This document shows positions 9,704 to 31,866 of a stretch of 32,024 nt of DNA, in pieces. The stretch is from Dichomitus squalens LYAD-421 SS1. Taxonomy: Eukaryota > Basidiomycota > Agaricomycetes > Polyporales > Polyporaceae. The first letter of the stretch is position 1, and the number at the start of each line of letters is the position of its first letter. The stretch is from positions 3,378,931 through 3,410,954 of the forward strand of contig NW_006766883.1 in NCBI RefSeq assembly GCF_000275845.1, written 5' to 3'. A program made the position numbers and the translations under genes. The notes under the pieces are model-generated. The model made no database searches, was not told the DNA's origin, and saw nothing but the letters and a program-made list of their open reading frames with translations.

Positions 9704-11055
9704 GACGAGGAGTTGGGTTCCATCGGGCAGACGGGTTACTACGAGGGATGGACGGAGTGCGCGGATGCACTGCGGGAACGCGACGAAGACAACGTGAAGG
9801 CAATGTCTGATGAACTTGACGCTTTTCTGGCATTTGTGAGTACCGGGGGCCTGAGATGAATAATCTCACTCTACTGATGGTTTCTCCTCAGTCTGGCATA
9901 TTCTCGGCTGTCATCACCCTGTTTGTAGGCCAAAGCGTTACATCGCTTCAACCCGATAATACTCAGGCTGCTGTCGATATCCTTCGGACAATCTCTCAGC
10001 AGATCGGGAACCAGAGCGCCGCCACCGTGGGGTTGAAGACGGAGCCTTTTCAGAGCAGCATCATCGACATTGCCTTGAACGCGCTGCTTAACGCGGGCCT
10101 GCTCTGCAGTCTCATCGCGTCTGGCATGAGCCTATGGGTCAAGCAGTGGCTCCGCGAGTACGTCCTCGACGAGCCCTCCCTTCCACGCAGCCGCGTTCGA
10201 GTGCGCCTTTACCGATACCATGGCCTTCGAATGTGGCACATCCGAGGAAGCGTTGCATGCATCTCGATCCTTCTACAACTCAGCGTCCTCCTCTTCTCCA
10301 CTGGCGTCGTCATGCTCGCTCACAAATTGAACACTACGCTCTCCTGGATCCTGCTCGCGCTCAATGGCGCATGGTGGGCGGTGACGTGGGGCTGTGCCAT
10401 CGTCGCTGCAGCCTCCGCCAATTGCCCATACAAGTCGCCCCTCTCCAGGGCGATTTTCCGCCTCGGATACCATTTCCGACAAATCTTCGGCAGCCGCGTC
10501 CGCTTCCTCAGGGAGTCAAACTTCGGTAAATACCCTACCTTCGAGAAGAGGGAGCTGGAGAAAACAGAGCTTCACTCTACGAAACTGGAGCTTGAGGCCC
10601 TCACATTTGCCAATCGCGAGCTCTGGGGCAGCGACCGGCTCACACGTATCAACGAATGCTTCAGGGAGTTCAAGGCCCGGGAGCGACCACTTGCGTTGAA
10701 GCACATCGAAAAGATCCTCCGCGCTCACTACTCTCTCGAGACAAGCGCTGATACATTCGAGTGGCCGGGTCAAGACCGCTTGGTCGCCACTGCTGATAAA
10801 GTGGTAAAGCAGCTCATGCGGATATGGTGCGATATCTTCGTGGAGCATTACGGCGAGAAGGCGCGTGTTCAGTCATTGTACCGGCTCTTCTATAGCGTGT
10901 CACAGGGAGAGCAGCACCTGTCCCACACTCATTATGCGCAGACGGAGGAGGTTGCTTGCGGCAGGCCCAAAGTCAGAGGGAAGTCGCCCATTATGTCGGA
11001 CGGCGGGGTGACCGTGTCAGTAGTTCCCGTAAATCCATGTGCCATCGCAGACTAG
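9704..11055 (+). CDS. DUF6535 domain membrane protein, 5' end unresolved
   Basis: Two exons are clear: 9704-9835 and 9892-11055, with a 56-nt intron (GTGAGT...CTCAG). The first ends GYYEGWTECADALRERDEDNVKAMSDELDAFLAF and the second begins SGIFSAVITLFVGQSV; together they are the DUF6535 entry, with the DxLLVFAGLFSAVxTAF-like signature. Four membrane segments follow in the family's order: FSAVITLF, LLNAGLLCSLIASGMSLWV, VACISILLQLSVLLFSTGV and LSWILLALNGAWWAVTWGC. The cytosolic tail of about 220 residues is helical. DUF6535 proteins are greatly expanded in Agaricomycetes; their function is unknown. Upstream, the frame reads DAFENYVSTFAD, then TAG TAC TAG, then DEELGSIG; either an intron (GTAAGG at about 9655 to TAG at 9703) removes these stops or the gene is damaged. 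No start codon can be fixed. Confidence 0.75.
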
Positions 11056-21841: not shown

Positions 21842-24151
21842 TCAAGGAGCAAAGACGAAAATATGAACAGTATCAGCTGACATGCCAGGAAGCAGAAAAC
21901 AAAATGAGTCGTACCACAAACGTGCCGGGATAGGGGCGCCTGCGAAGTCAAACACCGCGATCCTGGTACTGTTCGCGTACCCAATGCACAGCCGCCCGAT
22001 CGTTTCGTCCCATGCGACGGCAGAGACGTGGTCGAGATCAGCGAGCTCGAGGTTGAACTGATGGCTGACACGAATGCGGCTCGATTCCTCAAGGACGTCG
22101 GACTGACCGTCTTCCTCGTTGTCTTCGCTACCTTCGTCTGCGTCTTCCTCGTTGTCTTCGTTACCTTCGTCTACGTCTTCCTCAGGCTCCTCGTCATGGT
22201 CGTTCACCTCCTCGTCGTGAGCGGCGTCGTTCGCTGGCACATCCTGACTCCCAACAGCCTGTGCTTCCACTGTAGCAGGTGGCTTGTCGAGCAGGCCTTC
22301 ATCCCAGACCCCGCCGAGCATGCGAACCTGGAAAGATCTCGCCTTACTCCCTTGACGCGGAACGGTGTAGATGACAGGCCGAGTCGACCCGAGAAGGATG
22401 CGGTGCTCGTACAGGTCATTCAGGCTCTCCATCCCTTCCGGCAGCGGTTCCGTCTCGATAAACGGGTCGTCCTCGGAGAGGATGTAGATGTACCGCGTAC
22501 TCGGATCAGCGTCCGCGTTAGAAGTAGAAGAGGCAGGAATGGGTTCCGGGAAGAACGTACTGAAGACTAGGCCATACGAACGATCCGCCTGAACGAAGAT
22601 TGTGATAGGAAGGGGCTTTGTTGGAGACGTTGGCTGCAACTCCGCGCGTACGCTCACATCGTTCTTTAGCGCCGCGCCCATTCCGGGCTGGGTGATCCAC
22701 ACTTTGTGCCAGAAGTTCCAACCTGCGTCGTGCACGGCCGTCCGCGAGGCCGCATCGCAAGTCAACGAGGCCCCGTCTATGGTATACTTGACGTCATAGA
22801 GCTCCGCGAAGTAGTACGGTCCAGTGAGGATTTCCCCTGGCGGAAGGTCGGCGAGGTCGGCGGCGACTTGCAATGGATCGGGGTCCTCGCCTGCGCGGCG
22901 GACGAGAAGGAACTGGTGCTGAGACGGTACGAAGGTGAATGCCACGATGGCGTGTGCCTGCATGCATACATCAGCTGGAGGAGCCCTTGGGGTACAAGCA
23001 GAGACTGACGAAGTTTTGGTAGGAAGGGTGCGGTGCGCAGTACATAGTGCACCCCAGACCTCCGTCGAGATTCTTGTAAACGATGCGGTCGGGGTGCTTG
23101 AGCACCGCAACGAGGGGAATGCCGTTCCGGTCCTCATCTATGATAGGGTTGCTCATGCGCGCGCGCGATGTGATCTCGGTGAGGACCTGAAACGGGCGAT
23201 CCTGCTGCAGCGCGCGCGTGCGGTACTCTTTGGGATCCCAGGGCTTGTCATTGTCGAAGAGAAGCTCCAGAGATTGGAGTGGAACGTGCATGACGGCACA
23301 TTCGTACTTGACTTTGGCAGAGAACCAGTCAGAGTCAGGCGCAAGACGGTTGATATCGAATCTGAACATCAAGCAGTGAGTATATGCGTGCTATGAGCAA
23401 CGGTTATCATCAAATAGCTCACTCATCCTTGAAGCTTTCTCTACGATAGTTCCTGCGGATATAGGCGATTGCGATGCCGGGCCGGCCGTGAATGGACAGG
23501 TACTTTGCGCGCAGATGAAATGCCTTCGACGGGGTCGTGAGCCTAGCGACGGGGAATCCCATGGAGTAGTTAAAGTCGGACGTGTAGACCTCGATACAGT
23601 ACCGCATTGGGTTCCGGTCCGCGACGGTCGCGACGAGGTAGTGCCCTCCAGGGAGTAGTGCCATCTCGAGAACCTTCCGCTGCGCTTCGATCTCCCACCG
23701 GCGAAAATGCTGGGGACGGTGTTGATCCCACCGTTTCGGTAAGGAGAGTGAGCGGGTGAGCAGGCGCTCGGCTTCGATCTGGGAAATGTTCGCGAGGGAA
23801 TAGCGCTCGGTGGGCGGAACGGGTGGGAGTTGACGTTCGGTGTGGGTGAGGACGCGTTTCCAAACGGCAGGTTCGTTAGAACATCGTCGCAACTGATTGC
23901 TAACCTGCATATGTCGTGAGCTGCACCTGTGATCAAACGACATGAAAGAACACGGCTCTCACCTGGCGCACGGAGACGATGTCCTCTAGATTCAAATCCG
24001 GGAGGATGTTGTCGAGTATGATATCGTCATTGAGGATCCTTTGAGTAGCATTTTGAGCAGCGTGACCTAGGGCGGTCATTTTGTGCGTCAAGATGAAGGA
24101 TTTGGCTATGCGTTGATCAGTGTTGTTCAATGAGCTGCTGAGCTGGCCCAT
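21842..24151 (-). CDS. F-box protein with acidic repeat
   Basis: Exons on the minus strand, 24151-23963, 23904-23423, 23361-23010 and 22957-21842, give 2139 nt (712 aa). Near the start, RILNDDIILDNILPDLNLEDIVSVRQVSNQLRRCSNEPAVWKRVL is an F-box, so the protein probably feeds a substrate to an SCF ubiquitin ligase. The rest follows the Agaricomycete F-box/beta-propeller-like type: repeated strands such as LPGGHYLVATVADR and SAVAWDETIGRLCIGYANSTRIAVFDF. Around residues 580-630 an acidic stretch (NEDNEEDADEGSEDNEEDG) is encoded by a 33-base tandem repeat. The donor of intron 3 is GTCAGT. A second ATG at the MTALGHAAQ position would still keep the F-box, so the exact start is not certain. The gene follows mcr1 on the same strand after 261 bases. 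Confidence 0.82.
22109..22183. repeat. 33-bp tandem repeat, about 2.3 copies
   Basis: The unit beginning GTCTTCCTCG starts at 22109, 22142 and 22175, and the first two copies differ at only a few bases. It lies inside the last exon of the F-box gene and codes on the minus strand for an 11-residue acidic unit. The period is a multiple of three, so changes in copy number keep the frame. Confidence 0.8.
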
Positions 24152-31556: not shown

Positions 31557-31571
31557 GGGTTAGGGTTAGGG
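31557..31571 (+). repeat. Internal telomeric tract, 2.5 units
   Basis: GGGTTAGGGTTAGGG in the same orientation as the chromosome end, 295 bases inward of the terminal array. It marks a former position of the telomere or a telomere-primed junction. Confidence 0.75.
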
Positions 31572-31634
31572 AGGGAGATCGAAACCGAGCGAAGCGAGGT
31601 GAGATCGACCGTTGAGTCGAGGGTGGGTAGGGCG

Positions 31635-31710
31635 AGCTGAGTCAACGGGGGCGTTGTGTGCTACAACGTCCCGTCCCGTTTCGCCTTTTATAGCTCATCA
31701 GGACTCTGCT
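31635..31710 (-). ncRNA. Type I hammerhead ribozyme
   Basis: Minus strand, 5' to 3'. Stem I 5' strand AGCAGAGTC (31710-31702), core CTGATGA (31701-31695), stem II GCT-ATAAAA-GGC (31694-31683), core GAAA (31682-31679). Stem III continues from the last A with CGGG, pairing with CCCG before the U at 31645. A second helix CGTTGT/ACAACG (31668-31663, 31657-31652) caps stem III beyond an internal loop. The cleavage triplet GUU is 31646-31644, so cleavage would fall between 31644 and 31643. The 3' strand GACTCAGCT (31643-31635) closes stem I with eight pairs and one A-A mismatch. All invariant core bases are present, and C-G and G-C pairs flank the core as in the consensus. Stem III is longer than in most retroelement hammerheads. 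Confidence 0.8.
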
Positions 31711-31733
31711 TAGTGCATCCCTTTCGGGAAGTG

Positions 31734-31777
31734 CTTATCTCTTTGCCGTCTGTCTATCCGACGGCACAGGAGATAAG
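31734..31777. other. Long imperfect hairpin
   Basis: CTTATCTC (31734-31741) pairs with GAGATAAG (31770-31777), and GCCGTC (31745-31750) pairs with GACGGC (31760-31765), leaving a 9-base loop. It lies directly 5' of the hammerhead on the minus strand. Confidence 0.7.
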
Positions 31778-31825
31778 GTCAATTATGCTTACGATGCCGA
31801 ACGCGGCCGGAGCTTTGTTCCGATA

Positions 31826-31853
31826 ATGACTAAGTCCGATCGGACTATGTCAT
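31826..31853. other. Palindrome close to the telomere
   Basis: A perfect 14-base palindrome, AGTCCGATCGGACT (31833-31846), is extended by matching arms ATGAC and GTCAT after two unpaired bases on each side. It ends 13 bases before the terminal array. Confidence 0.75.
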
Positions 31854-31866
31854 CATGATTACTTAC

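What the first reader, a model, noticed from the sequence alone, without database searches (positions are those of the whole stretch)
31635..31710. Complete type I hammerhead ribozyme on the minus strand beside the telomere
All core bases (CTGATGA, GAAA, the A-U pair and a GUU cleavage triplet) are present, and three stems close, including a distant stem I of eight pairs with one mismatch. The chance of core and all stems agreeing in 76 bases is very low. Stem III is extended and bears an internal loop, unlike the very short stem III of most retroelement hammerheads, so it could work as a monomer.
Basis: partly seen in the sequence, partly recalled or inferred. Interest (0 to 1): 0.92.

Follow-up and report, generated by a model that had tools for sequence, protein, structure and literature searches.

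The report
Hammerhead ribozyme in telomeric retroelement remnant
At the very end of a fungal chromosome sits the tail of what looks like a telomere-seeking retroelement whose RNA carries a well-formed self-cutting (hammerhead) motif; ribozymes of this sort are already known from such elements, so this is a good new example rather than a new kind of thing.

Summary
The minus strand of 31635-31710 has every hammerhead core base, three stems and a GUU^G cleavage site at 31644/31643. A descriptor scan finds it once in the window and never in 600 shuffles. Of 16 core-motif matches in the 40.3-Mb genome, only the 5 copies of this sequence have all stems. Rfam does not recognise it, even at E up to 10. 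There is no covariation, and cleavage is untested.

It is not a free-standing ribozyme. It lies about 70 nt upstream of the 3' end of a repeat found at 8 places in the genome. The repeat ends in reverse-complement telomeric repeats in 6 of 7 readable 3' ends; at 7 of 8 places its 5' side faces a contig end at most 5 kb away. The window copy is 5'-truncated and capped by telomere. The host is Dichomitus squalens.

This is the anatomy described for endonuclease-deficient Penelope-like elements; their Terminon members carry a 3'-terminal hammerhead beside reverse-complement telomeric repeats (PMC3846280, PMC6431247, passages read). No Penelope-type reverse transcriptase was recognised, so membership is inferred. 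New member of a known kind.

The parts
31635..31710 (-). type I hammerhead ribozyme motif, whole
   Evidence: same in 5 of 5 long copies except 3 positions in stem III
31702..31710 (-). stem I, 5' strand (AGC-A-GAGUC)
31695..31701 (-). core CUGAUGA
31683..31694 (-). stem II and its loop
31679..31682 (-). core GAAA (last A pairs as A15.1)
31645..31679 (-). extended stem III with internal loop and terminal loop
   Evidence: variable positions of copies all lie here
31644..31646 (-). cleavage triplet GUU; predicted cut between 31644 and 31643
   Evidence: cleavage itself not tested
31635..31643 (-). stem I, 3' strand (GACUC-A-GCU), start of the predicted 3' product
31612..31634 (-). spacer, telomere-like in the C48/C57/C20/C34 copies, altered in C1 and C91
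31572..31611 (-). 40-nt 3' tail ending GATCTCCCT, shared by 7 of 8 places
31557..31571 (-). reverse-complement telomeric repeats CCCTAACCCTAACCC at the element's 3' end
31572..31866 (-). visible remnant of the telomeric element (295 nt), 8 places in the genome
31867..32024 (+). terminal telomere (TTAGGG)n, 26.3 copies, joined to the truncated 5' side of the element

Best explanation
A genuine type I hammerhead ribozyme motif in the 3' part of a telomere-attached retroelement, most likely an endonuclease-deficient Penelope-like element (PLE) of the basidiomycete Dichomitus squalens. Shown here: the motif, its copies, their orientation towards contig ends, the 3' reverse-complement telomeric repeats, and a 5'-truncated copy capped by telomere. 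Inferred: the sense RNA (minus strand here) ends in CCCUAA repeats that anneal to the G-rich 3' overhang of a chromosome end; reverse transcription extends the chromosome with the antisense strand; synthesis stopped early at ...CTTACTTA and telomerase added GGGTTA repeats. Also inferred: the ribozyme cuts the RNA at GUU^GACUC, most likely processing read-through or head-to-tail transcripts so that an RNA begins with the spacer and tail. The role of the ribozyme is called unknown for PLEs and Terminons in the literature I could read.
For: Motif: all core bases and stems; 1 descriptor hit against 0 in 600 shuffles; of 16 genome-wide core matches only the 5 family members have all stems; core, stem I, stem II and proximal stem III identical in 5 of 5 copies. 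Element: 8 places; in 7 of 8 the 5' side faces a contig end at most 5.0 kb away, and in 6 of 7 readable 3' ends the tail runs into at least one CCCTAA. Between the seven 3' flanks no blastn match at E<=1e-5 begins within the first 180 nt or so, so these are separate sites. Junction: the window has GATTACTTACTTA|GGGTTA where other copies have GATTACTTACTTA|CTAATC, as for truncation followed by telomere addition. Published pattern: EN-deficient PLEs are largely confined to chromosome ends, telomeric repeats are added to their truncated 5' end, and they are the only PLE type in fungi (PMC3846280, passages); Terminons have a 3'-terminal hammerhead next to reverse-complement telomeric repeats (PMC6431247, passages); Penelope-like elements lie at telomere-less chromosome ends of Agaricus bisporus (PMC7473861, passages). 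No GIY-YIG match passes the cut-off in this genome (best 18.1 bits against 22.6).
Against: No PLE-type reverse transcriptase recognised: of 41 RVT_1 matches I looked at 37; 26 show a Gypsy-like catalytic box, 4 showed none to my simple motif search, and 7 pieces read by eye look like LTR, LINE or DIRS types (types judged by eye from recall); 4 were not fetched. The element's 5' parts are cut off by contig ends or read N. No Rfam hit. Folding prefers other structures, and with flanks stem I falls to 0.00-0.05 in 5 of 5 copies; shuffled downstream sequence does the same in 159, 164 and 177 of 200 cases for the three copies tested, so this is weak evidence. C20 breaks one distal stem III pair. 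The C13 copy points the other way, and C26 has CTCTAATCC in place of CCCTAA. The other assembled telomere (C114) has no core motif in the 1.1 kb read. No covariation, transcript or cleavage data.
Confidence: 0.8

Rival explanations
1. A subtelomeric repeat that spreads between chromosome ends by recombination or break-induced replication at its flanking telomeric tracts, without its own retrotransposition; the hammerhead is a passenger or relic.
For: Telomeric tracts flank the unit on both sides in C57 and C20 and in the window; copies are 97-100% alike; no linked reverse transcriptase seen.
Against: 5'-truncated pieces of different length with a common 3' end (C1, C26, C13) look like reverse-transcription products; the C26 and C13 pieces have no telomeric tract directly on their 5' side.
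Confidence: 0.12
2. A non-autonomous, retrozyme-like or SINE-like telomeric element with a hammerhead, mobilised in trans by a PLE or other reverse transcriptase.
For: No open reading frame spans the readable 448-572 nt of C20 and C57 (stops in each sense frame); no reverse transcriptase in linkage.
Against: The readable part is only the 3' end; only one hammerhead per readable copy, whereas retrozymes need a pair.
Confidence: 0.12
3. A hammerhead that no longer cleaves: the fold is a relic or serves only as a structured 3' end that presents the telomeric repeats.
For: Competing folds; GUU is not the commonest triplet (recalled); PMC6431247 stresses the fold exposing telomeric repeats.
Against: Core, stem I, stem II and proximal stem III are identical in 5 of 5 copies, although the copies are too alike to prove selection.
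Confidence: 0.25
4. Chance resemblance to a hammerhead.
For: No Rfam match.
Against: 0 in 600 shuffles; 0 of 11 other core matches in the genome have the stems; position next to telomeric repeats matches the published Terminon layout.
Confidence: 0.02

Closest known systems
Terminons / Athena: telomere-associated EN-deficient PLEs of bdelloid rotifers (Arkhipova et al. 2017 not held; described in PMC6431247 and PMC3846280, passages read)
   Same: 3'-terminal hammerhead close to reverse-complement telomeric repeats; 5' truncation capped by telomere; chromosome-end location
   Different: Fungal host with TTAGGG repeats; about 70 nt (telomere-like spacer plus 40-nt tail) lie between cut site and CCCTAA repeats; stem III is long, whereas PLE and Terminon hammerheads are described as minimal, lacking helix III or the tertiary contacts (PMC7761336, passages)
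EN-deficient PLEs of fungi (clade in PMC3846280, passages; the name Coprina is recalled)
   Same: Fungal host, chromosome-end location, telomere at a truncated 5' end, no GIY-YIG match over cut-off in the genome
   Different: No RT ORF seen here, so clade membership is untested
Hammerheads of fungal and protist PLEs said to be stable as monomers (Cervera and De la Pena 2014, abstract recalled; paper not held)
   Same: Extended stem III
   Different: No sequence comparison was possible; recall only
Hammerhead of the Anolis PLE PAc (PMC11167929, passages)
   Same: Hammerhead in a PLE
   Different: PAc has a GIY-YIG endonuclease; its ribozyme overlaps the ORF start and cleaved only with protein present

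Membership tests
Hammerhead ribozyme (type I) | Core CUGANGA and GAAA, A15.1-U16.1 pair, NUH cleavage triplet | tested here: met
   5 of 5 copies
Hammerhead ribozyme (type I) | Three helices around the core, open at stem I | tested here: met
   98.5% of pair cells kept over 3 distinct sequences
Hammerhead ribozyme (type I) | Score above gathering for an Rfam hammerhead model | tested here: not met
   also not listed. A detection test by existing models, not a structural definition
Hammerhead ribozyme (type I) | Covariation of stems among homologues | tested here: inconclusive
   0 of 22 pairs vary on both sides; 3 distinct sequences
Hammerhead ribozyme (type I) | Self-cleavage at the predicted site | not testable with these tools
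   bench assay needed
EN-deficient Penelope-like element | Chromosome-end location with 5' side outward | tested here: met
   7 of 8 places at contig ends, 5' side outward; only C1 of these has an assembled terminal telomere array
EN-deficient Penelope-like element | Reverse-complement telomeric repeats at the 3' end | tested here: met
   6 of 7 readable 3' ends
EN-deficient Penelope-like element | Telomeric repeats added to a truncated 5' end | tested here: met
   window copy
EN-deficient Penelope-like element | Telomerase-like reverse transcriptase ORF | tested here: inconclusive
   none recognised among 37 of 41 RVT_1 matches looked at; 5' parts of the element not readable
EN-deficient Penelope-like element | No GIY-YIG endonuclease | tested here: inconclusive
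   no match over cut-off in the genome, but the element's coding part was not seen
Retrozyme | Pair of hammerheads bounding a short non-coding unit, circular RNA | tested here: inconclusive
   one hammerhead per readable copy; upstream parts missing; circular RNA not testable

The most novel reading that the evidence does not exclude
The telomere-capped copy is transcribed from or near the telomere as C-rich telomeric RNA carrying a working monomeric hammerhead, so that a self-cleaving ribozyme sets the end of telomeric RNA at a fungal chromosome end, or decides whether the element RNA keeps the telomere-annealing tail needed for priming.
Probability: 0.06. Interest if true: 0.75.

Novelty: new member of a known kind. 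Interest (0 to 1): 0.36.

Why it matters
[quoted passage not shown] A short, low-copy unit with a long-stemmed, possibly monomer-capable ribozyme beside telomere-annealing repeats in a fungus would be a tractable place to ask whether cleavage feeds or blocks chromosome-end priming. It also shows that an Rfam scan can pass over such a motif.

Tried and rejected
Rfam on the window at gathering and on 401 bases at E<=10, and RF00163 and RF00008 over the genome: site not listed (the 4 weak RF00163 places lie elsewhere, and that search also rings at E<=10 in 11 of 14 control genomes). RVT_1 search for the element's reverse transcriptase: none of PLE type recognised. Telomerase_RBD finds a likely TERT gene on C4, no help for the element. 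A switch of the ribozyme by the downstream spacer: a 9-of-10 complement in C1 and loss of stem I with flanks looked suggestive, but shuffled downstream sequence does the same in 159, 164 and 177 of 200 cases (3 of the 5 copies tested), so rejected. IMG/VR scan for the exact 24-nt core: 0 matches. Selection on the ribozyme: 3 variable positions in 76 nt among 5 near-identical copies is too little to judge. Model R1 was built but could not be run on this genome and was used nowhere. Alignment A1 had frames shifted by my coordinates and was replaced by A2. Gladyshev 2007, Cervera 2014, Arkhipova 2017 and Lunse 2017 are not held, so what they say of fungal hammerheads is recalled. Paper searches in the held library that listed no paper whose title or shown abstract reports a hammerhead in a fungal telomeric element: and 68 (the last poorly worded, mostly unrelated listings); I read passages of nine papers, no whole text. 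The nine are PMC7473861, PMC6155905, PMC6431247, PMC11167929, PMC7761336, PMC11722881, PMC4700185, PMC5408684 and PMC3846280; passages of a tenth, PMC3411680, held nothing on this.

Full report
Observation. The minus strand of 31635-31710 reads AGCAGAGUCCUGAUGAGCUAUAAAAGGCGAAACGGGACGGGACGUUGUAGCACACAACGCCCCCGUUGACUCAGCU. Every hammerhead core base is there, the three stems close, the ends lie in stem I (type I), and the cleavage triplet is GUU with the 3' product starting at 31643.

Chance. A descriptor (exact core, contiguous stem I of at least 5, stem II of at least 2, stem III of at least 3, NUH) finds one site in the window and none in 600 dinucleotide-preserving shuffles of bases 1-31860, both strands. 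In the 40.3-Mb genome, CTGATGAG-N(4-28)-CGAAAC has 16 matches against 11 for the reversed pattern. Five are copies of this sequence with all stems. Of the other 11 the best has stem I of 5 pairs but stem II of 1 and stem III of 2.

Against. No Rfam family matches at gathering or at E<=10 on 401 bases. Over the genome Hammerhead_1 lists 4 other weak places, best 21.2 bits against a cut-off of 34, and Hammerhead_3 none; only 73 of 6279 and 68 of 6533 candidates were scored. The hammerhead fold costs 6.2 kcal/mol against the minimum-energy fold, and with flanks stem I falls from 0.90-0.96 to 0.00-0.05 in all five copies. These energies give the core's non-canonical contacts no credit, and shuffled downstream sequence disturbs stem I as often (159, 164 and 177 of 200 for C1, C48 and C20). 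Folding therefore neither supports nor refutes activity.

What carries it. The 295 nt between the telomere and the internal telomeric repeats (31572-31866) match 8 places, the window's included: five long copies at 97-100% identity (C1, C91, C48, C57, C20), a 5' part at C13, and 3' ends at C34 and C26. At 7 of 8 the 5' side faces a contig end, at most 5.0 kb away; C13 points the other way and is cut by its contig end. In 6 of 7 readable 3' ends the element stops at ...GATCTCCCT and runs into CCCTAA repeats; C26 has CTCTAATCC. Among the seven 3' flanks no blastn match at E<=1e-5 begins within the first 180 nt or so; matches further in belong to other repeats. C91, C48, C57 and C20 share some 130-285 nt more on the 5' side, with a degenerate telomeric tract in C57 and C20, where the readable sequence goes far enough; C20 also lacks about 26 nt inside. 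The window copy lacks this 5' part: after GATTACTTAC the telomere begins, and the two share a further TTA. Two contig ends carry assembled telomere arrays, C1 and C114; C114 has no CTGANGA core in the 1,111 bases read.

Copies. In the 76-nt ribozyme the five copies differ at 3 positions, all in stem III's internal loop or distal stem; one (in C20) breaks a distal pair. Core, stem I, stem II and proximal stem III are identical. With 3 distinct sequences there is no covariation to count.

Host. A window gene (9856-11052) is 100% identical over 97% of the query to a Dichomitus squalens protein; this is a polypore.

Mechanism. PMC3846280 (passages) says that EN-deficient PLEs apparently prime on exposed chromosome ends, that telomeric repeats are then added to the truncated 5' end, and that fungal genomes hold only this PLE type. 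[quoted passage not shown] The window's element shows these DNA features, with a 70-nt interval in place of 'immediately'. I infer the same cycle. Shown: anatomy. Inferred: transcription, cleavage, annealing, reverse transcription. The gap is the reverse transcriptase: of 41 RVT_1 matches I looked at 37, by motif search and by eye, and recognised none of PLE type, but the element's 5' side is cut off or unreadable in every copy. No GIY-YIG match passes the cut-off, as the paper leads one to expect of a fungus.

Comparison and novelty. PLE and Terminon hammerheads are described as minimal type I motifs lacking helix III or the tertiary contacts (PMC7761336, passages; likewise PMC6155905, passages); this one has a long stem III. 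I recall that the 2014 abstract of Cervera and De la Pena already describes fungal and protist PLE ribozymes as stable monomers; the paper is not held. I therefore file this as a new member of a known kind, with membership by reverse transcriptase still open.

Noticed in passing
L019-L031 and L033-L036 (17 of the 22 matches): A dispersed repeat with a degenerate C-strand telomere-like tract (CCTAACCCAAACCCGAACCC...), most members with shared flanks and most not at contig ends; the tract resembles the one upstream of the hammerhead unit in C57 and C20.
   Followed up: partly
window 31609-31618 and 31639-31648: In the window copy the ribozyme's 3' strand has a 9-of-10 complement 20 nt downstream; C91 has the same spacer, C48, C57 and C20 do not. 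The folding control gives no sign of a switch.
   Followed up: yes
window 31612-31634: Two subfamilies (C1 and C91 against C48, C57, C20 and C34) differ by a cluster of changes in the spacer between ribozyme and tail.
   Followed up: partly
L006 (C13 contig end): One partial copy lies with its 3' side towards the contig end, opposite to the other seven; an internal copy or a broken assembly.
   Followed up: no
window 22108-22183: 33-bp tandem repeat (2.3 copies) inside a 431-aa frame on the minus strand with long acidic runs.
   Followed up: no
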